Shown here in pieces: positions 6,428-18,269 of a stretch of DNA of 63,096 nt (position 1 is its first letter; every line of letters begins with the position of its first letter). The notes below the pieces were generated by a model. The model saw nothing but the letters and a program-made list of their open reading frames with translations. It searched no databases and had not been told where the DNA came from. Both the position numbers and the translations under genes were made by a program. The stretch is taken from positions 1-63,096 of the forward strand of contig DROS01000108.1 in NCBI GenBank assembly GCA_011321815.1, given 5' to 3'. Origin of the DNA: Gammaproteobacteria bacterium (GTDB lineage: Bacteria; Pseudomonadota; Gammaproteobacteria; SZUA-152).

Positions 6428-6535
6428 GTGCCCGAACGCGACGAACCATCAGCTGAAAAAAAGGTCAATCGCTAGTACTCTGTCCCTGTTGGCATACCCG
6501 TTACCCCCCTTGGAAAAATGGAATCTGCCCTCAAA
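6428..6535 (+). repeat. Imperfect direct repeat, upstream arm (gene-tail relic)
   Basis: It encodes a 15-residue tail ending DEPSAEKKVNR then stop, followed by a second reading VPVGIPVTPLGKMESALK. The arm at 11323-11460 encodes HEPSMEKEVNR-stop and FVDMPVATTPEKIESTLK-stop. Conservation at the protein level suggests both are remnants of the same pair of gene ends. Confidence 0.5.
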
Positions 6536-6603
6536 TTCCTTTCTCGGTAAAGGATGGCAAACCGGCCATTGGGGTTCTGTCCACAACAGCACTTATCGCC
6601 GGG

Positions 6604-6650: not shown

Positions 6651-7658
6651 ATGAATACAAACATCGCAGCCGCTGCGAGCACGTCCAATAGCGCGGCTTG
6701 TCAAGCTTTCCATCAGGTTCGCGAGCACCTGCAAGCGCGCATTATCGGCCAGCAGACATTGGTTGATCGCTTGTTGATTGCGTTGCTGGCTGATGGCCAT
6801 CTGTTGGTGGAGGGTGCGCCGGGGCTGGCCAAAACCACCGCTATCAAGGAGCTGGCCGCCGTGCTGGAGGGCGATTTTCATCGTTTACAGTTTACTCCGG
6901 ATCTGTTGCCCGGTGACCTCACCGGCACCGATATCTACCGCCCCGAGACTGGCGATTTTCAGTTCCAGCCGGGGCCCTTGTTTCATAATCTGATCCTCGC
7001 TGATGAGATCAATCGTGCTCCGGCCAAGGTGCAGTCGGCATTGCTTGAGGCCATGGGTGAGAAGCAGATTACCGTTGGTCGTCATACTTATCCCTTGCCT
7101 CGCCCATTTCTGGTTATGGCGACACAAAATCCTATCGAGCAGGAAGGTACTTATGCCTTGCCCGAGGCCCAGCTGGACCGTTTTCTGATGCATGTGCGCA
7201 TCGACTATCCCGACGTTCAGGCGGAACACGCCATTTTAAAGCTGGCGCGTGAGCAGGCCGGGCAGGAGGATGTTTCTCCGGCAAGCAACGGGGTGGCGTT
7301 GAGCAAGGCACAGATTTTTACCGCCCGTCAGGAGGTGCTGGATATCCATATGGCCGAGCCGGTGGAGGAGTATCTGGTGCAATTGGTGTTGGCCAGCCGT
7401 AACCCGGCACCCTACAGTTCGACACTGGCGCGCTGGATAAATTATGGCGCCAGTCCGCGCGCCACTATCGCCCTTGATCGCTGCGCCCGCGCCCATGCCT
7501 GGCTGGACAGCCGTGATTATGTGTCACCGGCTGATGTGCAGGCTGTAGCTTTTGATGTGATGCGCCACCGGGTGCTGATTTCCTTTGAAGCCGAGGCGGA
7601 GGGCATGACTGCCGACGATGCGATTCGCGAATTGCTGAAGTTGATCCCGGTCGCCTGA
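6651..7658 (+). CDS. MoxR-family AAA+ ATPase
   Basis: This 335-residue AAA+ ATPase has a Walker A motif GAPGLAKTT at residues 55-63, Walker B LADEINRAP at about 116-124 and a sensor-1 region MATQNPIEQEGTYALPEAQLDRF. MoxR proteins are chaperone-like ATPases that act with von Willebrand factor A (vWA) proteins encoded beside them. An AAGGAG site eight bases before the ATG fixes the start. It heads the moxR-DUF58-DUF4381-vWA-vWA/TPR-BatD operon; the DUF58 gene starts one base after its stop. Confidence 0.93.
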   Translation: MNTNIAAAASTSNSAACQAFHQVREHLQARIIGQQTLVDRLLIALLADGHLLVEGAPGLAKTTAIKELAAVLEGDFHRLQFTPDLLPGDLTGTDIYRPETGDFQFQPGPLFHNLILADEINRAPAKVQSALLEAMGEKQITVGRHTYPLPRPFLVMATQNPIEQEGTYALPEAQLDRFLMHVRIDYPDVQAEHAILKLAREQAGQEDVSPASNGVALSKAQIFTARQEVLDIHMAEPVEEYLVQLVLASRNPAPYSSTLARWINYGASPRATIALDRCARAHAWLDSRDYVSPADVQAVAFDVMRHRVLISFEAEAEGMTADDAIRELLKLIPVA

Positions 7659-7659
7659 G

Positions 7660-8697
7660 ATGCGATTTTTCAAACGATTTCTGCCGGGCCGTCATCGGTC
7701 CACTGCGGATGTGGTAACGGATGTCACTTCTGACGCTGCTACCCTGAACTCTGCCACCCGCCCCAGTCTTGATGAGCTTATTGCCCTGCGCCAGCAGGCT
7801 GGCAAGCTGGACCTCAGCCGCAAGCAGGCGGCTCGTGCGCAGCTGTCAGGCGGCCATGCTTCACGTTTTCGTGGCCGTGGCATGGATTACCAGGAGTCAC
7901 GCATTTATCAGCCCGGCGACGATATCCGCAATATGGACTGGCGGGTCACCGCACGCACGGGCCGACCGCATACCAAGCTCTTTCAGGAAGAACGCGAGCG
8001 CCCGGTGGTCGTGTGCGTGGATTTGAACCCCGGCATGTTTTTCGCCAGCCGGGGGGCGCTCAAGTCGGTGGTGGCGGCGCGCGCGGCCAGCCTCATCGCC
8101 TGGGCCACAGCCGCTCACGGCGACCGTATCGGTGCTCTGCTGTTCAATGGTGACCACCACGAACTGCCCCCGCGCGGCGGCAAACACGGCGTGTTACGCC
8201 TGATCCGTCAGCTGGTGGCGCAAACCGACCCGCTGGAAAACCTCCAGCAACCGCCACACCCGCAGGGGCTGAATACCGCACTGGGTCGCTTGCGCCGGGT
8301 CAGTCGGCCCGGCAGTCTGGTTGTTCTGCTCAGCGACTTTTACGGCATTGATGAGGAAACCGGCAAACACCTGACACGACTGCGCCAGCACAATGATGTG
8401 ATGGCCATCCAGATGGTTGATGCACTGGAACTCGCTCCCCCGCCTCCGGCGCGCTACGGTGTCAGCGATGGGCAGCAGCACACCGGCATTCTCGATACCC
8501 GCTCGGCCACCGCACGAAAGGCCTACCGTGATTTTTTCAGTGAGCACCATCAGGCGTTGCGGGATCTCATGCGCAGCCGGGCCATTCCACTGTTGCAATT
8601 GTCCACTGACGCAGACGTGGCCAGTATTCTGCGTGGCTACTTTGGTGGCAGAGCAACAGCTCCGCTACAAAACCTGCCACACGAAACCGCCGCATGA
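7660..8697 (+). CDS. DUF58 domain protein (Bat operon)
   Basis: A 345-residue cytosolic protein with the DUF58 signature RGMDYQESRIYQPGDDIR followed by NMDWRVTART at about residues 68-105, and a degenerate vWA-like core (VVVCVDLNPGMFF, VVLLSDFYG). DUF58 proteins are constant partners of MoxR ATPases in Bat-type operons; their biochemical role is not established. The stop overlaps the start of the DUF4381 gene (ATGA), which indicates translational coupling. Confidence 0.9.
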   Translation: MRFFKRFLPGRHRSTADVVTDVTSDAATLNSATRPSLDELIALRQQAGKLDLSRKQAARAQLSGGHASRFRGRGMDYQESRIYQPGDDIRNMDWRVTARTGRPHTKLFQEERERPVVVCVDLNPGMFFASRGALKSVVAARAASLIAWATAAHGDRIGALLFNGDHHELPPRGGKHGVLRLIRQLVAQTDPLENLQQPPHPQGLNTALGRLRRVSRPGSLVVLLSDFYGIDEETGKHLTRLRQHNDVMAIQMVDALELAPPPPARYGVSDGQQHTGILDTRSATARKAYRDFFSEHHQALRDLMRSRAIPLLQLSTDADVASILRGYFGGRATAPLQNLPHETAA

Positions 8698-9176
8698 ACC
8701 CGTCCAGTCCATCAGCACTGCAACTGCGCGATATTCACCTGCCCGCCGAGCCCGGTTGGTGGCCTCCGGCCCCTGGCTGGTGGATACTCGCCGTGCTGTT
8801 GCTGATCTTGCTGGTGTGGACAACACGCTTTGCCCTGCGCCGTTACCGTCTGTACCGTCAACGTCAGCGATTGCTGGCCACACTCGATGCACTGACCCGG
8901 CAGCCCGGCGATGTTACTCCGGAAACAATCACGCAGCTTTCCATCCTGCTGCGGCGGCTGGCGCTGATGCGTTTCCCCCGCCAGCAGGTGGCCGCCCTCA
9001 GTGGCAGTGAGTGGCTGGACTTTCTCGACCGCTCTGGTGGCGATGGTGGCTTCAGCCACGGCCCCGGTCAGGTGCTGGCCACCGGCCCCTATCAGCCTGC
9101 CCTGTCAGCTGATGTGGATATGGCGGCGCTAAGTGCTCTGTTGCGTGAGTGGATAAAAAAGAATATGGGTCGCTGA
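8694..9176 (+). CDS. DUF4381 membrane protein (Bat operon)
   Basis: The 160-residue product has the family N-terminus LRDIHLPAEPGWWPPAPGWW. One membrane helix follows (ILAVLLLILLVWTT) and then a basic cytosolic helical domain ending SALLREWIKKNMGR. DUF4381 proteins sit between DUF58 and the vWA proteins in MoxR/Bat operons. Here the next Bat gene is displaced 2.5 kb downstream by an accessory islet. A diverged second copy of this gene's last 26 codons lies just in front of that gene (11549-11629). Confidence 0.88.
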   Translation: MNPSSPSALQLRDIHLPAEPGWWPPAPGWWILAVLLLILLVWTTRFALRRYRLYRQRQRLLATLDALTRQPGDVTPETITQLSILLRRLALMRFPRQQVAALSGSEWLDFLDRSGGDGGFSHGPGQVLATGPYQPALSADVDMAALSALLREWIKKNMGR

Positions 9177-9249
9177 TTGAGTGCTGATAATTAAAATGTG
9201 AATTAAAGGCTAAATCGCTCTGTTAACACTTTTTACTGAAAATACCGTC

Positions 9250-9274
9250 ATTCCGGCATATTTTTAGCCGGAAT
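9250..9274. repeat. REP-like hairpin
   Basis: ATTCCGGC (9250-9257), a nine-base loop, then GCCGGAAT (9267-9274): a perfect 8-bp stem. The surrounding GTCATTCCGGC / GCCGGAATCCAG wording is widespread in bacterial intergenic repeats. Confidence 0.6.
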
Positions 9275-9314
9275 CCAGAAGCTTAAACCCCCGGATACCA
9301 CTTCACCTGATCAC

Positions 9315-9410
9315 TTAAACTGAAGGATCTGATTCCCCCAAAGACTCACCGATTTCACGAATGGTGAAAAGAAGTTTATCGCTAATGGTATATTTTGGCT
9401 TCCAGGGCAT
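9315..9410 (-). pseudogene. Relic of a Fic-family protein N-terminus
   Basis: The 31-codon frame begins MPWKPKYTISDKLLFTIREI and then stops. W-P-x-Y-x-I followed by a helix is what I remember of the N-terminus of many Fic proteins; the FIC catalytic motif and everything after are missing. Low certainty because it is so short. Confidence 0.25.
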
Positions 9411-9530
9411 AGCTTTAAATTAGCCGAAAATTAGCCACTATTTCTTCAAGCGTATTTTTGAATAGGGCCAGCTCCATGCGAAACGTGCCTAAGGAATGCG
9501 TATCGGTGACACCTAACTCCCACAAACACA

Positions 9531-9690
9531 ACACCACCGGCTTTGCTGACACTGGCCAGGCTTTTCAGTCTGCCTGCATGCTTGGCTATATTTGCTGTCG
9601 CAGGGACACCACCTGCCCGGGGAATGCGGATGCTTTGGTGGATTGTTTTATTGCCGAACAGAGGTTTTCCAGCCGGCTCAGTGTTTATTT
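9531..9690 (-). pseudogene. Fragment of a second LysM-toxin-like gene
   Basis: On the minus strand this reads LFGNKTIHQSIRIPRAGG, then VPATANIAKHAGRLKSLASV, then SKAGGVVL. It is closely similar to residues about 183-230 of the LysM protein at 10095-11066. No start, LysM domain or C-terminal glycine-zipper region remains. It lies just beyond the small membrane gene at 9707-10093, the position expected for a displaced older cassette. Confidence 0.75.
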
Positions 9691-9706: not shown

Positions 9707-10093
9707 TTACTTCCACAACTCGTAGCGTATATAAAAAATCACAGAAAGTAATACCAGCAAAACCATGAGAGGTATAAAAAAATAAATAAAGTATTTTGAT
9801 GCTTTACAATACCACACTGGCGCCAGTTTATAGGCGTGCTTCACTCCTCTTTTCTTTCCGCTGGCAGGAAAAGCCAGCGCCCTCATAAACATTGCTGTTC
9901 TCATATAACCAAAAGGAAATCCGGTAAACATGGTGATTTCAGTTGCACTGAAGTAGGGCTCTTTAAAATAAGCTTTCAGTACGTTTTTTGGCATTAAAAT
10001 ATGCATGATAAAAATAAATACAAGGCTCAACATAAGGCAAAGCAATGCTGTTACGAAAATTATTGCCAGAATATCATCCAGTAACGAAGTCAT
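9707..10093 (-). CDS. Small inner-membrane protein, candidate immunity partner of the LysM protein
   Basis: Starting at the ATG at 10093 the protein has 128 residues. It has an N-terminal membrane helix (about residues 5-30) and a C-terminal one (YFIYFFIPLMVLLVLLSVIFYI), with a basic loop between them. The ATG follows the stop of the LysM gene by one base, so the two are translationally coupled. I do not recognise the family. The pairing of a small membrane protein with a likely membrane-active toxin suggests immunity, but that is inference from position. A longer frame to 10237 overlaps the LysM gene and is not preferred. Confidence 0.6.
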   Translation of the reverse strand: MTSLLDDILAIIFVTALLCLMLSLVFIFIMHILMPKNVLKAYFKEPYFSATEITMFTGFPFGYMRTAMFMRALAFPASGKKRGVKHAYKLAPVWYCKASKYFIYFFIPLMVLLVLLSVIFYIRYELWK

Positions 10094-10094
10094 G

Positions 10095-11066
10095 TTATTT
10101 ACACATCCTGCCAGTCCCTGTGCCTTCAACAAAGTCAATCTCTCCATAGGTATCATAGAGATAACGCACACCTTTCCCTGCCAGATAACTCGTTGCTGTA
10201 CTGCCCACAGCCAGCACAATCGCTGCCCCCCAGCCAATCGGGTTAGAGATCAAAAACAGGCCAATAGCAGCACCTAAACCAACCCCCATAGTCGTACTGG
10301 TAATGGTTTCAACAAATATCTCGTTTTTCTCTTTACTGTCTGTGGCATTAGCTATTTGCATACAGGCAGCGGTTAATCCAACGCCCATGAGTATAACGCC
10401 ACCGGCTTTGCTCACAGTGCCCAGATTTTTCAGTCTGTCAGCATGTTTGGCGATATGCGCTGTTGCAGGAATGCCGCCTGCCCGGGCAATACGGATGCTT
10501 TGATGTGTTGTTTTATTACCGAATAATACTTTTTCAACAGGCCCGATATTTTTTCTGAGTTGGTCCAGTGCCTGTTTACGCCGATAATCATATTGTGATT
10601 TTGTCGTTTTTTCTGATTTATAGTCCGCGTAATGATCGCTGACTTTTTTGATCAGACTGACATTGCCGGGACTGAGAAGATTACCCGCTGCACCCGTAGC
10701 AATGCTTCCCGGAATGGTTAGATAATTGGCATTGTGTTCAAGCCAGGAAAGCATCCAAAAACTTTCCATATCGTTAGGGGAGACTGATCGGGTAATAAAA
10801 GCCGGTGGTTTTATCTGGCTCGGGCGTGCGATTGTCGGCGGTTTGGGTTGAGGTGTTACTGGCAGTACGCCCAGGTGAAGCATATCGCCTGCCCTGATTC
10901 GGTCCGGATTGCTTATTTGGGGATTCAGCGCCAGTACATGTCTGACGGCTTCCGCATAGCGGGTATCATTCAGGACACAACCAAACATGCTGTGTATGAT
11001 GCCGGAGAAGGTGTCTCCATTTTTGATTTTATATTCGTAATATATATTTCCGGATGTATTACTCAT
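10095..11066 (-). CDS. LysM-domain protein with glycine-zipper C-terminus, putative membrane-active effector
   Basis: The 323-residue protein opens with a LysM domain (YEYKIKNGDTFSGIIHSMFG to RIRAGDMLHLG, about residues 10-66) and then a proline-rich linker (PQPKPPTIARPSQIKPP). The middle is charged. The C-terminal half has hydrophobic glycine-rich segments (GVILMGVGLTAACM; TTMGVGLGAAIGLFLIS; GWGAAIVLAVGSTATSYLAG) able to enter membranes. There is no signal peptide, so export would need a contact-dependent system. AAGGAAA lies upstream of the ATG. It is encoded antisense to the surrounding Bat operon and coupled to the membrane gene downstream. The effector role is inferred. Confidence 0.6.
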   Translation of the reverse strand: MSNTSGNIYYEYKIKNGDTFSGIIHSMFGCVLNDTRYAEAVRHVLALNPQISNPDRIRAGDMLHLGVLPVTPQPKPPTIARPSQIKPPAFITRSVSPNDMESFWMLSWLEHNANYLTIPGSIATGAAGNLLSPGNVSLIKKVSDHYADYKSEKTTKSQYDYRRKQALDQLRKNIGPVEKVLFGNKTTHQSIRIARAGGIPATAHIAKHADRLKNLGTVSKAGGVILMGVGLTAACMQIANATDSKEKNEIFVETITSTTMGVGLGAAIGLFLISNPIGWGAAIVLAVGSTATSYLAGKGVRYLYDTYGEIDFVEGTGTGRMCK

Positions 11067-11322
11067 GTTATTTATTTCCTTACGTTATACACCTTGTTTG
11101 TCTGCTCCTGCTTTTCCGGATTATACCCATTGTCTTTATTCCAAAGAAACGAAAGAAACAGACCTGTGATTTGATTAGAAAGCATTCAGGTCAAATATCA
11201 CACAAATTAGCCAGACGAAAAGGCCTAATGATTAAGGAAGGTTGTTTGATGCCTGAAATTACGGCGGCCAACCGCAATCTGCTGGCGTCATTATCTCGGC
11301 AACGTCACGAAACATTTACCGG

Positions 11323-11460
11323 AGTGGCTGAATTCCACGAACCATCCATGGAAAAAGAGGTCAATCGTTAAAACCACAAATAGCCCGGCACTGGCTTTGT
11401 CGATATGCCCGTTGCCACCACCCCTGAAAAAATCGAATCTACCCTCAAATGATTTTCTGC
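11323..11460 (+). repeat. Imperfect direct repeat, downstream arm (gene-tail relic)
   Basis: Partner of 6428-6535. It encodes HEPSMEKEVNR-stop (stop at 11368-11370) and then FVDMPVATTPEKIESTLK-stop (stop at 11449-11451). It has about 20 extra bases between the two frames relative to the upstream arm. Confidence 0.5.
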
Positions 11461-11548
11461 AAAAACAGGCAGCCGACTGATCAAACACTAACAGATACCC
11501 ACGACAGCCTGATTCACGATAATATTGCGGTCCATTGCGTCGTCGAAA

Positions 11549-11629
11549 CCCGGCCTGCCCGCCGATGTGAGTCTGGTGGCGCTGAGCGCCCTGATGCGCG
11601 AATGGATAAACAAGAACATGAATCACTGA
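11549..11629 (+). pseudogene. Duplicated 3' end of the DUF4381 gene
   Basis: The 26 codons read PGLPADVSLVALSALM then REWINKNMNH and stop. They align throughout with the end of the complete DUF4381 protein at 8694-9176 (QPALSADVDMAALSALL, REWIKKNMGR). At DNA level the two copies agree at roughly three quarters of positions. The rest of the gene is absent. The fragment stands exactly where the end of DUF4381 would lie if the islet were not there. Confidence 0.8.
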
Positions 11630-11644
11630 TTATGAGCATTAACA

Positions 11645-12664
11645 ATGAGTATTGAATTCGCCTGGCCTTGGCTGTTCGCCGCCCTGCCCTTGCCATTATT
11701 GGCTCTGCTACTGCCCCGCGCGCCCAGCGTCACCCCGGCCACGCTGCACATCCCCTTTTATGCCGCCCTGCAAGACAATCTGCAAACGCACAGTGGTCCA
11801 CGCTCCCGCCCGCGGCTGTTGTTGGCCATATTTGCCTGGGGGCTGTTGGTGCTGGCGGCAACCCGCCCGCAGCTGATCGGTGAGAGCGTGCATCTGCCGG
11901 TGAGCGGTCGCAGTCTGATGCTGGCGGTGGATATCTCCGGCTCCATGCAAAATGAGGACATGCAGATCCGCGGCCTTCGGTTGAGCCGTCTGGCAGCGGT
12001 CAAAAATGTTGCCGGTGATTTCATCGAACAACGCAAAGGTGATCGCATCGGTCTGATCCTGTTTGGCGACGAAGCCTACCTGCAAGCGCCGCTGACCTTT
12101 GACCGCAATACCGTGCGCACCCTGTTGAACGAGGCGCAAATCGGTCTGGCCGGTCAGCAAACCGCCATTGGCGATGCCATCGGTCTGGCCATCAAGCGCC
12201 TGCGCAAGGAACCCGCCAGCAACCGGGTGCTGATCCTGCTCACTGATGGTGCGAACACGGCGGGTAATGTCGATCCACTCAAGGCCGCTGATCTGGCGGC
12301 TCGCGAGGATGTGCGCATTTATACCATTGGCATTGGCAGTGGTGAGACGCTGATTCAAACCCCCTTCGGTATGCGCCGCGTGGCGGCAGGCGATCTCGAC
12401 GAAGACAACCTCAAAGCCATCAGCGAAAAAACCGGCGGGCGTTATTTCCGCGCCCGTGATACCGGCCAGCTGGTAAAAATTTACGCGCTGCTGGATCGTA
12501 TCGAACCGGTTTCCGAAGACAAACAGACCTGGCGACCGATCAATGAACTTTATTTCTGGCCATTGGGCGCCGCGCTGCTGCTCAGTGTGCTGATTGCCCT
12601 GGCCGCCATCCTGCGCGGGCGTACGGCTCTGCGCCCCCGCCGCGAGGCATCGTCCCATGCCTGA
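11645..12664 (+). CDS. batA: vWA-domain membrane protein BatA
   Basis: A 339-residue inner-membrane protein. Two N-terminal membrane helices (about residues 8-25 and 58-75) are followed by a von Willebrand factor A domain whose metal-ion-dependent adhesion site is intact (DISGS at 96-100, with later TDGAN), and a C-terminal membrane helix (FWPLGAALLLSVLIALAAIL). BatA-type proteins work with MoxR in envelope stress or metalloprotein maturation; the substrate is not known. It overlaps the next gene by eight bases. Confidence 0.9.
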   Translation: MSIEFAWPWLFAALPLPLLALLLPRAPSVTPATLHIPFYAALQDNLQTHSGPRSRPRLLLAIFAWGLLVLAATRPQLIGESVHLPVSGRSLMLAVDISGSMQNEDMQIRGLRLSRLAAVKNVAGDFIEQRKGDRIGLILFGDEAYLQAPLTFDRNTVRTLLNEAQIGLAGQQTAIGDAIGLAIKRLRKEPASNRVLILLTDGANTAGNVDPLKAADLAAREDVRIYTIGIGSGETLIQTPFGMRRVAAGDLDEDNLKAISEKTGGRYFRARDTGQLVKIYALLDRIEPVSEDKQTWRPINELYFWPLGAALLLSVLIALAAILRGRTALRPRREASSHA

Positions 12665-14567
12665 GCAATTCCATTTCCTTCAGCCCCAGTGGCTGCTGGC
12701 CCTGATCCCGCTGGCATTGCTGCTGTGGCTATTGCGTCATGCCGCTACAGGCGGCAACCCCTGGAGTCGTATTATTGATGCCCGTCTGCAACCCCTGTTG
12801 CTCATGGGGCAAACCCGGCGGGTCAGCTATTTACTGTTATGGCTGCTCGGTCTGGGTTGGCTGATCACCACACTGTCGCTGGCTGACCCGGTGTGGGAGA
12901 AACAGCCACGGCCGCTATTCCAGACCAATGCAGCGCGGGTCATCGTGCTGGACCTGTCACGCTCCATGCTCAATCGTGACCTCAAACCTTCGCGACTGGC
13001 ACGGGCACGCTTCAAGATCGAAGACATCCTCACCCGCGACGAAGAAGGCCAGACCGGGCTGGTGGTATTTGCCGGTGATGCCTTCACCGTTACCCCGCTG
13101 ACCCGCGATGCGGATACGATCAGCGCCCTGCTCAAATCCCTCGACCCGGAGCTGATGCCGGTACAGGGCAGCCGCCCTGACCTCGGCCTGCAAAAAGCCG
13201 GTGAACTGCTGCAACAGGCAGGCCTGCTCAACGGTCAGGTTCTGCTGTTGGCCGATGGTGTCAGCGGAAACAAGGCCCGCGATGCCGCTGAGGATTTATA
13301 CAGTAAAGGTTACCGCGTATCGGTGCTCGGTGTCGGCACGGAAAACCCCGAACCACTGACCAATGCGCAAGGGCAACTGCTGCGCACGCAAGGTGGCCAG
13401 CCCATCTTGCCACCGCTTGAAACCCATGCGCTTGAGGCCGTTGCCAAGGCCGGTGGCGGACATTACCGCCGTTTCAGCGACAACGATAGTGACATTTCAG
13501 CCCTGCTGAGCAGCGACACAACAATGGATACCGAAAACCCTATCAGCAATGACCTGCAAGGACAGGACTGGCAATCACGCGGCCCCTGGCTGGTGGTATT
13601 ACTGCTACCGCTGGCGGCACTAGCCTTCCGCCGGGGCTGGCTGTTGAGCGTGATATTGGTGGCCGGTGTGTTGTTGCCACCACAGCCGGCCATGGCCATG
13701 GGCTGGGACGACCTCTGGCAACGCCCTGATCAACAGGCCAGCAAGGCGCTAGCGGAACAAAACTACGACCGCGCCAGCCAGGTGGCCAAAGACCCTCTGC
13801 TGCGCGGCAGCGCCGAATACCGGCGTGGCAATTATGAACAGGCACTGGAAGCCTATTCTCAGGCCAGCGGCACCACCGCCGATTACAACCGGGGCAACGC
13901 ACTGGCAAAACTCGGGCGCTACGAGGAAGCCATTGCCGCCTATGAGGAAGCGTTGAAATCGGCATCCGGAAAAATGGACGACGCACAGGCTAATAAGGCC
14001 GCAGTGGAAGCCTTGCTGCGCCAGCAACAACAAAACGAGCAATCACAAGATCAGCAAACCGGAGAAAACAGCGAAGAGAACAGCGAAAAAAGCACCGAAG
14101 AAAATAACGAGGAAGGCCGGCAAAGCGAATCTTCCCGTCAGGATCAACAAGCTGGATCGGGTGAACAAGCACAACAAGACACGGCCGATCAACAGGAACA
14201 GCAAAACACACAAGGGGAAACGCCGCAAGACAGTGACGAAAACACCTTTGCTGACGCTGCAAAAGCACTGGAAGAAGAACAAGCCGAAGACGCATCAAAA
14301 CAGCAGGAACAGAACGCAGGCACCGCCAGTGAAAAACCGGCAGAACAACAACCGGAAAACAATGAGCCTCCGTCAGCGCAACAGACCGCGCAAGCGGACG
14401 ACCAGCCAGCGCATGCCCAACCCCTCAACAGCGAAGAGCAAATGGCCGCCGAACAATGGCTGCGGCGCATCCCGGATGACCCAGGTGGTTTGCTACGGCG
14501 CAAATTTCAATATCAATATCAACGGCGGGCACAGCGCGAAGGAACAGGCAGTGCGCAGCCCTGGTGA
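12657..14567 (+). CDS. vWA-TPR membrane protein (BatB/BatC fusion)
   Basis: With the ATG at 12657 overlapping the batA stop, the protein has 636 residues. N-terminal membrane helices are followed by a vWA domain with MIDAS DLSRS at 99-103. A membrane pair around residues 307-345 leads to tetratricopeptide repeats at about 365-440 (RGNYEQALEAYSQASG; LGRYEEAIAAYEEAL). Then comes a long Q/E/N-rich low-complexity tract (about 450-590) and the conserved end EEQMAAEQWLRRIPDDPGG...QPW. It joins in one chain the BatB and BatC functions often encoded separately. A second copy of its last codons is found at 18243-18269. Confidence 0.88.
   Translation: MPEQFHFLQPQWLLALIPLALLLWLLRHAATGGNPWSRIIDARLQPLLLMGQTRRVSYLLLWLLGLGWLITTLSLADPVWEKQPRPLFQTNAARVIVLDLSRSMLNRDLKPSRLARARFKIEDILTRDEEGQTGLVVFAGDAFTVTPLTRDADTISALLKSLDPELMPVQGSRPDLGLQKAGELLQQAGLLNGQVLLLADGVSGNKARDAAEDLYSKGYRVSVLGVGTENPEPLTNAQGQLLRTQGGQPILPPLETHALEAVAKAGGGHYRRFSDNDSDISALLSSDTTMDTENPISNDLQGQDWQSRGPWLVVLLLPLAALAFRRGWLLSVILVAGVLLPPQPAMAMGWDDLWQRPDQQASKALAEQNYDRASQVAKDPLLRGSAEYRRGNYEQALEAYSQASGTTADYNRGNALAKLGRYEEAIAAYEEALKSASGKMDDAQANKAAVEALLRQQQQNEQSQDQQTGENSEENSEKSTEENNEEGRQSESSRQDQQAGSGEQAQQDTADQQEQQNTQGETPQDSDENTFADAAKALEEEQAEDASKQQEQNAGTASEKPAEQQPENNEPPSAQQTAQADDQPAHAQPLNSEEQMAAEQWLRRIPDDPGGLLRRKFQYQYQRRAQREGTGSAQPW
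14507..14522. repeat. Short repeat TCAATATCAATATCAA at the batB end
   Basis: The same TATCAATATCAA string ends both B genes of islet 2 (16693-16704 and 18222-18233). In batB it encodes QYQYQ, in the B genes YQYQ-stop. It is a possible microhomology at the junction of the inserted DNA. Confidence 0.4.
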
Positions 14568-14725
14568 AAACCATCAGCAGCGATTATTGGCGCTACTCCA
14601 CAGCCTGGGAACTGAGTGTATCTTCTGGAGCCTTTAAATTAACGAGATTGCGATCTGGACTTTAATTTGCTTTAAAATAACGATAACGACGTTTTTAGTA
14701 AAAAATGACAACCAAGGGATTAAAA

Positions 14726-15522
14726 ATGTCAAAACTGCAAATACCCGCATCGTTTAAAAGCACGAACAGCACCCTTAAACCTTCGGCAACCCGCATTATT
14801 AACCGGGATTTAACCAGCGCCAAATTATTGATTTCTCAATTTGTTAAATTAAGCAGTGCTGCGAATTTTATGCCTGCTTTTAGTGGCAGGGATATTGCCT
14901 GGCCAAGGATTGTCCGGCTCTTTATGTAAAGTCTGTCATTGAATTATACCTGTACGGAGAAACCAAAATTAATGACTTGCACATAAAACCTTCATTAAGC
15001 TGCAAAAAAGCAAAATTACCCAAAGGAATGGCCAGTATCGACTGGATTACACTGGCCAGCTTGGCGGATTCATCAAATGCTCTTTATAATTATGATTCTG
15101 ATGCAGATAAGTTTTCCGGCATTACACTGCCGGGCAGGCTGGAATCCTGGTTTAAAGCTGCGGGCTATAAACATGTAAGCAAACATACAAATTTGTTTTT
15201 TGACAAAAATATAAACAACCTCTTAAAAGCGAAAAATGCCTTTAAGGAAGGAAAAAATGTCTGTTTGTTTCTCTCGGCAAAATCACTGGAAACCCCCGCA
15301 ACAGTAAGTCTTATCCCCAATCACTGGGTTGTCATGAGCCGTCATTTGAAAGTAGGCACTCCTCGCTCAATAAATTTTTCGACAAGCGCGAGCGAAATAA
15401 AAGATAAAAAATTTGATTTAGAGGTGTTTACCTGGGGCCGGGAGGCCTTCAATATGAATAAAAAACAATTGTCATTATACGAATTTAGCGATTATTATTT
15501 TGGCTATATTGTTGCATCATAA
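14726..15522 (+). pseudogene. Gene A, first copy: frameshifted papain-like/CGPA-type effector candidate
   Basis: The first half runs from the ATG at 14726 (AAGGGA upstream) to a stop at 14929. The coding signal then continues in another frame (YCLAKDCPALYVKSVIELYL) into the 14977-15522 frame, which ends YEFSDYYFGYIVAS. A one-base loss near 14870-14890 explains this. The break falls where relatives, as I remember them, have an A-C-G-P-A active-site cysteine; a candidate histidine follows in LIPNHWVVMS. The family is uncharacterised as far as I know. Gene B follows after 12 bases. I read A as a toxin-like partner now inactivated. Confidence 0.5.
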
Positions 15523-15534
15523 GAGAGAACACTA

Positions 15535-16707
15535 ATGAACTCAACACCAATAACGATTAAAAAAATAATGAAACTGGTAATATTTTCATTATTACTTGTA
15601 CCGCTCGCTTGCCTGGCAGATACCTTTATTAAAATTCAGGAATTAAAAAATACCTTTAAAGGTGGCGCTGTTGACATTAGCCCCTCTGAAGATGGTCGTT
15701 ATGTTTTTGTCAAAGATTTGCATCAAATTTATTGGCTGATGAGTATTACCCGACCACTCGCGTTCCATAAAATTTTCAATGACAAACCAGATTCCCCTAT
15801 TTTTGACTATAGATTCCTGCGAGGACAATGGCACAATAACCATATTATATTTTTCTCTGATGACAAAACCGAATTTTACAATGTACAAAGCCAAAAAATT
15901 GATCAACGTTATCCATTGATACTCTCCAGCTTTAGTAATAGTGAAATTTTCTGGTCAGAAAAACACCAGCGATTTATCGTTGGCACTAAAGTCTTTGCCC
16001 TGGACACTGATGCCGAACAAAATCCTGAACAACCCGGGCATGCAGGCCAAAGAGGTTTGTTAATGATGGAGAATGGCAATGATTACATCACCGCAGGTTT
16101 TCATGATGAAAGCATCATGCATTGGACTTTACCTGATGGTAAATTGAAAAAAACCTGGCGGCTTGGCAACTGGTATTCATCACAAAATGTATCTGATATT
16201 GCACTTATCGATAATCGTTTATTGGTGGCAACAAACAATGGCGAAATTGCAGAGCGTTCAATTGAAAATGGCAATGTACTTTGGTCTGCTTCGCCCTGTA
16301 GCAGTTTTTTTGCAAGTGACAAACCCTATTTCCTACTAAACGGCTTATCAATAGATAGTTCGATTTACGATAAAAAACTTGTTTTTTATCAGTGTGATAG
16401 CCTAGAAACCAAATATGGTTTTATAGAAAAACAGAAAAATGGTTGGACGCTTAATAAAATCACCTTGCAATCCATAACAAATTCCGATCTTGAATATGTG
16501 TACCATCTTGATTCATTAGACAAAGCCATTTTCGGTCTATATGATGGACGGATACTGCTTTATGACCTTAAAAACAAAAATATTGATCAAATGATTGTAC
16601 CCAAATCAGCAGAGGGAGAAGGACCAACTTTGTTTGCCTATCTGAAAGCTGACAAACTGCTCGTGATCGTAAACGACGACAGCGTGGACATCTATCAATA
16701 TCAATAG
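15535..16707 (+). CDS. Gene B, first copy: secreted repeat protein, candidate immunity partner of A
   Basis: The 390-residue protein has a signal peptide (MKLVIFSLLLVPLACLA, cleavage before DTF) preceded by an 11-residue basic extension, so it is probably periplasmic. The mature part has repeated W/Y-rich strands (EDGRYVFVKDLHQIYWL; DGKLKKTWRLGNWYSS; NGEIAERSIENGNVLWSASP) like a beta-propeller of WD40/PQQ type. I do not recognise a named family. It is intact while both A copies are broken, and it is duplicated together with A, which is what one expects of a retained immunity gene. That role is inferred. Confidence 0.6.
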   Translation: MNSTPITIKKIMKLVIFSLLLVPLACLADTFIKIQELKNTFKGGAVDISPSEDGRYVFVKDLHQIYWLMSITRPLAFHKIFNDKPDSPIFDYRFLRGQWHNNHIIFFSDDKTEFYNVQSQKIDQRYPLILSSFSNSEIFWSEKHQRFIVGTKVFALDTDAEQNPEQPGHAGQRGLLMMENGNDYITAGFHDESIMHWTLPDGKLKKTWRLGNWYSSQNVSDIALIDNRLLVATNNGEIAERSIENGNVLWSASPCSSFFASDKPYFLLNGLSIDSSIYDKKLVFYQCDSLETKYGFIEKQKNGWTLNKITLQSITNSDLEYVYHLDSLDKAIFGLYDGRILLYDLKNKNIDQMIVPKSAEGEGPTLFAYLKADKLLVIVNDDSVDIYQYQ

Positions 16708-16717
16708 TTCTCAGGCC

Positions 16718-17051
16718 AATTTGTTTTTTTGACAAAAGTGTGGACAGCCTGTTAAAAGCACAAAACGCCTTTAAAGCAGGAAAAAATGTCTGTTTGTTTC
16801 TCTCGGCCAAATCACGATATGCCCCCATGACAATCAGCCTTATTCCCAACCACTGGGCTGTCATGAGCCGTTCTCTGAAAGTAGGCAACCCTCGCTCCGG
16901 TAACTTTTCATCAAATGCAGACGAAATAAAAGATGAGGAATTTGATTTGCAGGTATTTACCTGGGGTTTGGAGACCAAAGAAATGAACCCTAGGAAATTG
17001 TCACTATACGAATTTAGCGATTATTATTTTGGCTACGTTGTTGCATCATAA
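16718..17051 (+). pseudogene. Gene A, second copy: 5'-truncated
   Basis: Only the last 107 or so residues remain (FFDKSVDSLLKAQNAFKAG to YEFSDYYFGYVVAS). The similarity begins immediately after the stop of the first B gene, so the N-terminal half including the putative active-site cysteine is missing. It is strongly similar to the end of the first A copy. A GTG at 16740 could start a 103-residue peptide, but no ribosome binding site is evident. Confidence 0.7.
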
Positions 17052-17063
17052 GTGAGAATACCA

Positions 17064-18236
17064 ATGAATTTCATACCAGTAACGATTAAAAAAATAATGA
17101 AACCTGTAATATTTTCATTATTATTTGTACCGCTCACTTGCTTGGCAGATACCTTTGTTAAAGTTCAGGAATTAAAAAATACCTTTAAAGGTGGTGTCCT
17201 TGACATTAGCGTCTCTGAAAACGGTCGTTACGTTTTTATCAAAGATACGCATCAAGTTTATTGGCTGATGAGCACTGCCCGACCACTCGCGTTCCATAAA
17301 ATTTTCAATGACAGACCGAATTCTTCCGTTGTGGATTCTAGATCCCTGCGAGCACAATGGCACAATAACCATATTATATTTTTCTCCGATGACAAAACCG
17401 AGTTTTACGATGTAGAAAACCATAAAATTGATCAACGTTATTCATTGATACTCTCCAGCTTTAGTAACAGTGAAATTTTCTGGTCAGAAAAACACCAGCG
17501 CTTTATCGTTGGCACTAAAGTATTTTCTGTAGACAATGATACACAGGAAGACCCTGGACAGGATTGGCATGCATACCAGACCGGTTTGTTAATGACTAAA
17601 AATGGTAATGATTACATTACTTCAGGTTATCATGATGAAAGCATCATGCGCTGGACTTTGCCGGATGGAAAATTGAAAGCAACCTGGCAGATTGGAAGCT
17701 GGTATGCATCGCGCAAGGTGTCCGATATTGCTCTTGTCGACAATCATTTGTTGGTGGCAACAAACAATGGGGAGATTAATATACGCTCAATCGACGATGG
17801 CAGTGTACTTTGGTCAGCATCTCCTTGCAGCAGTTTTTTCTCAAGTTCAAGTCCCTATTTTTTACTCTCTGGCCCATTAACAAAAAAATCTATTCATCAT
17901 AACAAGTTTGTTTTTTTCAAGTGTGATGATACAAGATCTACATTTGGCTATATCGAAAAACAGGAAAATAGTTGGAAACTTGACAAAATCACCTTACCAT
18001 CCACGGGAAACTCCAGCCTTCAATACGCATATTATCTTGACTCACTAAACAAGGCCATTTTAGGGTTATATAATGGACAGGTACTGCTTTATGATCTTGA
18101 AAATAAAAATATTGACTAGGTGATTGTACCCAAATCAGAGGAAGGAGATGGACCTGCTTTATTCGCTTACTTGAAAGCAGACAAACTGCTCGTTGTCGTG
18201 AACGACAATAACGTGGACATCTATCAATATCAATAG
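17064..18236 (+). pseudogene. Gene B, second copy with premature stop
   Basis: It is closely similar to the first B gene over its whole length, including the signal peptide (MKPVIFSLLFVPLTCLA). A TAG at 18117-18119 replaces the CAA of the first copy (KNID-stop versus KNIDQ). The frame continues unchanged to VDIYQYQ and the normal stop at 18234-18236. The protein made would lack the last 38 residues; whether it is functional cannot be judged. Confidence 0.75.
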
Positions 18237-18242
18237 CTCTCT

Positions 18243-18269
18243 GACCAAAGACAGCGACAGCCCTGGTAA
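18243..18269 (+). pseudogene. Duplicated 3' end of the vWA-TPR gene
   Basis: Eight codons read DQRQRQPW followed by stop, directly after gene B'. The complete gene at 12657-14567 ends GSAQPW. This is short, but it matches the situation at 11549-11629, where another Bat gene tail follows an islet. Confidence 0.45.

What the first reader, a model, noticed from the sequence alone, without database searches (positions are those of the whole stretch)
11549..11629. Leftover C-terminal tail of DUF4381 downstream of islet 1
Twenty-six codons plus stop align without gaps to the end of the complete protein 2.4 kb upstream, with the reading frame intact but DNA diverged by about a quarter. This is strong evidence for replacement or duplication at the insertion point rather than simple insertion.
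Basis: seen in the sequence. Interest (0 to 1): 0.7.

Follow-up and report, generated by a model that had tools for sequence, protein, structure and literature searches.

The report
Scar of a duplicated, gutted operon
The 27-codon scrap behind a small gene insert is the last visible end of a second, mostly deleted copy of the surrounding bacterial operon, a fossil of the recombination that placed variable toxin-like or defence-like genes between two operon genes.

Summary
In detail: 11549-11629 (t2) matches the end of the DUF4381 gene (t1, 9096-9176) at 61 of 81 bases and 18 of 27 codons; elsewhere the window reaches at most 39 of 81. But it is not a lone tail. The ~225 bases before it are decayed pieces of genes that precede this operon in relatives: a histidine kinase (11324-11383) and the 3' end of yfdX (11394-11548), fused to DUF4381 at a shared AACCC. 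So islet 1 is followed by a second operon copy, kinase'-yfdX'-[moxR, DUF58, DUF4381 body missing]-t2-batA. Another species, G009, has the same junction behind different islet genes, and a second scar of the same design at DUF58. The close sister G006 has no islet and differs from the window sharply just at the tails. Duplication is well supported; 'replacement' is half right; donor and direction stay open. Additive recombination followed by trimming is a known kind of event; this is a well-preserved variant.

The parts
6428..6474 (+). histidine-kinase relic in front of moxR (left copy)
   Evidence: 77% to 11324-11370; kinase match score 32 and 37 vs shuffle maxima 25 and 30
6494..6544 (+). yfdX relic in front of moxR (left copy; the gene's last part is missing here)
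   Evidence: 78% to 11405-11458; tblastn to G019 YfdX E 0.005; alignment
6651..7658 (+). moxR, left copy, intact
   Evidence: Pfam AAA_3 5.8e-63
7660..8697 (+). DUF58 gene, left copy, intact
   Evidence: Pfam DUF58 4.8e-44
8694..9176 (+). DUF4381 gene, intact; its last 81 bases are t1 (9096-9176)
   Evidence: Pfam DUF4381 3.2e-43; 5 mismatches to G006 in 8694-9094, 17 in 9095-9176
9177..9190 (+). remnant of the batA leader of the left copy; G009 keeps a few more bases, up to batA codon 3
   Evidence: alignment with G009 and empty G002
9190..9297 (.). dispersed repeat at the left edge of islet 1
   Evidence: 18 matches in the own genome, this one included
9306..9436 (-). relic of the 5' end of a Fic gene that is whole in the islet of G009
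   Evidence: 88.6% to L079 4821-4952; Pfam Fic there
9529..9660 (-). fragment of a second LysM-type effector gene
   Evidence: 82% to 10395-10523; matches to several loci
9707..10093 (-). islet 1 membrane protein, immunity-like (inferred)
   Evidence: no Pfam, NCBIfam or PADLOC match; same gene beside the LysM gene at other sites
10095..11066 (-). islet 1 LysM-like protein, effector-like (inferred)
   Evidence: weak LysM, 0.0094, below cut-off
11324..11383 (+). histidine-kinase relic of the right copy
   Evidence: 75% to the G019 kinase gene; score 46 vs shuffle maximum 25 of 200
11394..11548 (+). yfdX 3'-end relic of the right copy, up to its last codons
   Evidence: scores 89, 66, 71, 68 vs shuffle maxima 29, 36, 27, 29 of 300; tblastn E 1.8e-5
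11549..11629 (+). t2: last 26 codons and stop of the second DUF4381 copy
   Evidence: 61 of 81 to t1; 72 of 81 to G009 t2
11645..12664 (+). batA-like VWA gene, intact
   Evidence: Pfam VWA 1.2e-23
12657..14567 (+). batB-like VWA-TPR gene, intact
   Evidence: Pfam VWA_2 8.1e-14 and TPR

Best explanation
The tail is the 3' end of a second copy of the operon neighbourhood (kinase-yfdX-moxR-DUF58-DUF4381-batA). A recombination that added DNA instead of swapping it left a tandem copy with the islet at the joint. The left copy runs from the operon's front to the first codons of batA; the right copy begins inside the kinase gene and runs on into batA and batB. Because moxR, DUF58 and DUF4381 were then present twice, the spare set in the right copy could be lost; a deletion between an AACCC at the end of yfdX and one at DUF4381 codon ~132 left only kinase'-yfdX'-tail. 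Later, islets were exchanged between the two flanks. Shown: the order of the relics, the shared junction in two species, empty sites in relatives, a second scar of the same design in G009. Inferred: that a full second copy once existed, that it came from another lineage, and that DNA uptake or a similar single-ended or circular integration made it. t2 most likely has no product of its own; its frame is not that of yfdX and no start was shown.
For: Relic order kinase-yfdX-tail-batA matches the order of intact genes in G019 and G008, with moxR-DUF58-DUF4381 body missing. Same junction in G009 over window 11264-11660, 86.4% of 397 columns. Junction microhomology AACCC in intact yfdX ends and DUF4381 genes of relatives. 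Left copy continues into the batA leader and, in G009, codon 3. G009 DUF58 islet: left copy ends 16 codons into DUF4381, right copy is a DUF58 remnant before a whole DUF4381. G006, G002, SZUA-117 and the g3 genomes have no islet. Window against G006: 5 of 401 mismatches in the DUF4381 body, 17 of 82 in t1, 18 of 81 in t2, 29 of 360 at the start of batA, 16 of 660 in the rest, 14 of 1200 in batB. The right relic keeps the last part of yfdX that the left copies of window, G006 and SZUA-117 lack, so it was not copied from the window's present front.
Against: No genome with a whole second copy was found; the missing middle is inferred. Only two genomes show this junction, in one genus. The tail tree has no well-supported branch. 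Evidence on who changed is mixed: in batA 1-360 eight sites are private to the window and three to G006, yet G006 is closer than expected to G002 there at 4-fold sites (52 of 65, against 346 of 544 in MoxR, DUF4381 body, rest of batA and batB). The relic is 85% alike between window and G009 (241 of 283) while 4-fold sites are 68% (403 of 596), but another relic, left of window against SZUA-117, is also 78% (124 of 158), so the excess is modest. The start of the DUF58 remnant in G009 was read by eye only.
Confidence: 0.75

Rival explanations
1. Tail replacement: the islet came in with its own DUF4381 tail (t1) and pushed the old tail (t2) downstream, as islands do that restore the end of their target gene.
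For: t1 departs abruptly from the sister G006 (17 of 82 against 5 of 401 before it) and pairs with t1 of G009 (87/83).
Against: t2 is no closer to G006 than t1 (63 against 65 of 81). The kinase and yfdX relics in front of t2 are unexplained. The two largest islet ORFs are not integrases or transposases; other ORFs were not scanned.
Confidence: 0.1
2. Old in-lineage tandem duplication: the common ancestor of window and G009 duplicated its own operon front; the copies drifted apart vertically, and G006, SZUA-117 and others later lost islet and second copy.
For: t1 pairs with t1 and t2 lies nearest t2 across the two species (70 and 72 of 81). G006's batA start looks closer than expected to G002, as if G006 had been overwritten by an empty allele.
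Against: Needs separate losses in close sisters of both carriers (G006; SZUA-117). Relic is more alike between window and G009 than 4-fold sites, though modestly against another relic.
Confidence: 0.25
3. The scar is kept because it does a job: the old front of the operon serves as leader or promoter for batA-batB behind the islet.
For: It holds DNA from in front of moxR, stands right before batA, and is 85% alike across species.
Against: Promoter scan: 5 sites found, 4.9 expected, none on the + strand within 11264-11645. The scan covers only sigma-70-type sites.
Confidence: 0.15
4. Chance or assembly artefact.
For: 81 bases is short; the genome is a draft in 109 contigs.
Against: 61 of 81 against at most 43 in 100,000 shuffles; same junction in a separate assembly of another species.
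Confidence: 0.02

Closest known systems
Displacement of T6SS effector genes by incoming effector-immunity modules in Vibrio cholerae (Kirchberger 2017, PMC5361080; passages seen)
   Same: Variable effector-immunity-like cargo, relics of displaced genes, 3' ends shifted behind the newcomer, exchange by recombination in shared flanks; the authors suggest homology-facilitated illegitimate recombination for the additions.
   Different: There the displaced gene is the effector in a T6SS cluster; here a housekeeping MoxR/VWA operon is duplicated and gutted, and the window's genome and G009 gave no VipB match.
Merodiploids made by transformation in Streptococcus pneumoniae (Johnston 2013, PMC3784515; abstract and section 9 read)
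   Same: DNA uptake gives a tandem duplication instead of a swap, with two alleles side by side.
   Different: Those duplications are ~100 to ~900 kb, bordered by repeats, fresh in the laboratory; here a few kb, old, and reduced to a scar.
Homology-facilitated illegitimate recombination (recalled; named in passages of PMC5361080)
   Same: One homologous end and one end joined at little or no homology can add foreign DNA.
   Different: Not observed here; only the end state is seen, and the right-hand junction is best read as a later deletion.
Displaced C-terminal tips of Rhs and CdiA toxins (recalled; Rhs named in passages of PMC5361080)
   Same: A gene end is left behind an incoming module.
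   Different: There the tips are toxin domains; here the tail belongs to a DUF4381 protein that is not part of the cargo.

Membership tests
Insertion-duplication scar (additive recombination, then trimming) | Two copies of the same flanking stretch, one on either side of the insert | tested here: met
   t1/t2 and left/right kinase-yfdX relics
Insertion-duplication scar (additive recombination, then trimming) | Left copy runs past the insertion point into the next gene | tested here: met
   batA leader after t1, to codon 3 in G009; 16 codons of DUF4381 at the G009 DUF58 islet
Insertion-duplication scar (additive recombination, then trimming) | An untrimmed intermediate with a whole second copy | tested here: inconclusive
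   None among the 57 genomes; extra DUF4381 copies in G032 and G033 lie on other contigs and were not examined
Insertion-duplication scar (additive recombination, then trimming) | Empty site in close relatives | tested here: met
   G006, G002, SZUA-117 and others
T6SS effector-immunity displacement array | Cargo of effector-immunity pairs with relics of earlier cargo | tested here: inconclusive
   Pesticin-type lysozyme beside a lipoprotein-like gene in G009; Fic and LysM relics in the window; the window's own pair has no significant family match
T6SS effector-immunity displacement array | T6SS in the genome | tested here: not met
   VipB (PF05943) in 4 of 12 genus genomes, not in G000 or G009; one marker only
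Site-specific island that restores its target gene's 3' end | Near-identical att repeats of the target's end | tested here: not met
   Copies 61 of 81 alike, right copy preceded by yfdX relic
Site-specific island that restores its target gene's 3' end | Integrase gene in the element | tested here: inconclusive
   Two largest ORFs of islet 1 have no such match; smaller ORFs not scanned
Transposon or IS insertion | Transposase and short identical target duplication | tested here: inconclusive
   Duplicated stretch is long and diverged, unlike a target duplication; smaller ORFs not scanned for transposase

The most novel reading that the evidence does not exclude
This operon is a docking site where effector or defence islets repeatedly arrive by copying part of the operon: each arrival makes a short-lived second operon copy that is then trimmed, and the trimmed scar afterwards serves as a ready-made homologous flank through which islets are swapped between species. 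Window and G009 would then share an inherited exchange site with changing cargo, and scars could be read as a clock and a record of islet turnover.
Probability: 0.25. Interest if true: 0.6.

Novelty: new variant of a known kind. Interest (0 to 1): 0.42.

Why it matters
How toxin-like and defence islets enter the middle of conserved operons without an integrase is mostly inferred from before-and-after pictures. Here the junction keeps the pieces of the discarded copy in order, with a shared deletion point in two species and a second case in the same operon, so the route (duplicate, insert, trim, exchange) can be tested by looking for intermediates.

Tried and rejected
Simple tail replacement was the first hypothesis and was dropped when the stretch before t2 matched the front of the operon. 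I tried to decide whether the window gained the block or G006 lost it, from private sites and 4-fold sites; the signs disagree. The promoter scan gave no excess over shuffles. The other LysM loci fetched were searched for duplicated flanks of their host genes; self-comparison of nine loci showed internal repeats and dispersed repeats; I did not recognise a gene-end scar like t2 there, but I did not annotate each repeat. Script one search listed L023 as separated; reading it showed DUF4381 and batA side by side, so I count it as adjacent. Rows include repeated genomes, and L038 is the G009 scar itself. Literature searches gave no account of such a scar at this operon; DUF4381 occurs in 2 papers of the library, seen as listings only.

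Full report
What was checked. The 81 bases at 11549-11629 (t2) match the end of the complete DUF4381 gene (t1, 9096-9176) at 61 of 81 bases and 18 of 27 codons, without gaps; no other place in the window exceeds 39 of 81, and 100,000 codon shuffles reach at most 43. The locus is an operon moxR (6651-7658), DUF58 (7660-8697), DUF4381 (8694-9176), batA-like VWA (11645-12664), batB-like VWA-TPR (12657-14567), with islet 1 between DUF4381 and batA. The names batA and batB are recalled for this kind of operon; Pfam gives VWA and TPR domains.

What lies in front of the tail. A search of 12 genus genomes with 11180-11629 found matches to the region before moxR in G003 and G002. Finer comparison placed 11324-11383 in the histidine-kinase gene and 11394-11548 at the 3' end of the yfdX gene that precedes moxR in G019, G021 and G008. 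The upstream genes of G019 and G008 are YfdX (PF10938, 8.5e-20 and 4e-19) and a kinase with HAMP, HisKA and HATPase_c. Local alignment of 11264-11548 to yfdX regions scores 89 (G003), 66 (G019), 71 (G008), 68 (G021) and 55 (window's own front), against maxima of 29, 36, 27, 29 and 27 in 300 dinucleotide shuffles each. The kinase piece scores 46 (G019) and 38 (G008) against maxima of 25 and 26 in 200 shuffles. Bases 11264-11323 are shared with G009 but were not assigned to a gene. The yfdX relic runs to the last codons of that gene and then passes into DUF4381; both partners carry AACCC there in several relatives.

Same scar elsewhere. In 57 genomes searched with the DUF4381 protein, 27 had a match, and a second, tail-only match occurred in two, the window's genome and G009. 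G009 shares the relic and tail with the window at 86.4% over 397 columns, with the junction at the same point, but its islet holds a Fic gene, a lipoprotein-like gene and a pesticin-type lysozyme gene. The window's islet keeps the first part of the same Fic gene (9306-9436, 88.6%) and a piece of a second LysM gene (9529-9660), so its cargo has turned over. In G009 a second islet (DuOB, DUF488, mSLOG-DUF4326) follows DUF58. There the left copy goes on for 16 codons into DUF4381, and the right side carries a DUF58 remnant before the whole DUF4381 gene; 87.9% over 198 columns. That the remnant starts with DUF58 residues ~34-56 joined to ~278 I read by eye from the ORF. G008 also has an islet after DUF4381, but its contig ends inside it.

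Empty sites. Of 69 DUF4381 loci compared, the script found batA directly behind the gene in 54, separated in 2, and not visible in 13; one of the two, L023, proved adjacent on reading, leaving G009. The 69 rows hold several genomes twice, include G009's scar as L038, and the window's own row (L009) is cut short by its 1.5-kb flank. In the genus, G006, G002 and SZUA-117 are empty.

Which tail is native? G006 is nearly identical to the window in moxR (98.9%), DUF58 (99.1%) and the first kilobase of batB (99.1%). In DUF4381 it differs at 5 of 401 bases up to 9094 and then at 17 of 82. It differs from t2 at 18 of 81, from the first 360 bases of batA at 29, and from the remaining 660 at 16. So both tails stand out, and the disturbed tract covers both edges of the islet. 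A tree of 10 tails has no branch at 95/80; t1 of window and G009 pair at 87/83. A tree of t2 plus the batA start still joins window and G006 (96/92), with much longer branches than the downstream gene stretch. In batA 1-360, eight sites are private to the window and three to G006, which points to a change in the window; but G006 is unusually close to G002 there at 4-fold sites (52 of 65, against 346 of 544 elsewhere), which points to G006. I leave the direction open.

Where the second copy came from. In front of moxR, the window, G006 and SZUA-117 lack the last part of yfdX, while the relic before t2 keeps it, as do G003 and the intact genes. The right copy was therefore not made from the window's present operon front. 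Window and G009 are 85.2% alike in the relic (241 of 283), against 67.6% at 4-fold sites of DUF58, DUF4381, batA and batB (403 of 596). A fairer yardstick, the left relic of window against SZUA-117, is 78.5% (124 of 158, with 15 gapped columns against 2), so a recent transfer of the scar is suggested, not proved.

How it most likely arose. An incoming molecule, or an uneven exchange, added DNA and left two operon fronts in tandem with the islet at the joint. The spare moxR-DUF58-DUF4381 set was lost by a deletion at AACCC, leaving kinase'-yfdX'-tail before batA. Shown are the order of relics, the shared junction, the empty relatives and the second case. Inferred are the full second copy, its foreign origin and the route. 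Merodiploid formation by transformation is documented in pneumococcus (PMC3784515, abstract and section 9), and additive insertion with displaced gene ends is proposed for V. cholerae effector arrays (PMC5361080, passages). The present case differs in that a housekeeping operon was duplicated and gutted.

Function. I find no sign that t2 makes a product: its frame differs from yfdX and the relics hold stops. A role as leader of batA is possible; a simple promoter scan shows no excess (5 found, 4.9 expected). The cargo looks like effector-immunity or defence genes, but the window's own pair has no significant family match, and VipB was found in 4 of 12 genus genomes and not in G000 or G009.

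Noticed in passing
window 9190-9297: Dispersed repeat of about 108 bases, 18 matches in the own genome including this one; further copies in many relatives. It sits at the left edge of islet 1.
   Followed up: partly
window 14659-18248: Islet 2 behind batB contains a 1.5-kb tandem repeat (15190-16719 and 16718-18248, 80.5%) with a beta-propeller-like gene; G009 has a related islet at the same place.
   Followed up: partly
G000:C56 (L148 5846-7671), L149, L150, L151, L152: The LysM-like gene and its small membrane partner occur at several other sites in the genus, among unrelated genes.
   Followed up: partly
L079 1239-2917: DuOB, DUF488 and mSLOG-DUF4326 genes (PADLOC candidate PDC-M45 for two of them) sit inside the operon of G009 between DUF58 and its remnant.
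   Followed up: partly
L081 5408-6407: moxR of G008 is read in two frames, so it is frameshifted or misassembled.
   Followed up: no
G000 and G009: Effector-like islets, but no VipB (TssC) match in these two genomes; one marker only.
   Followed up: no
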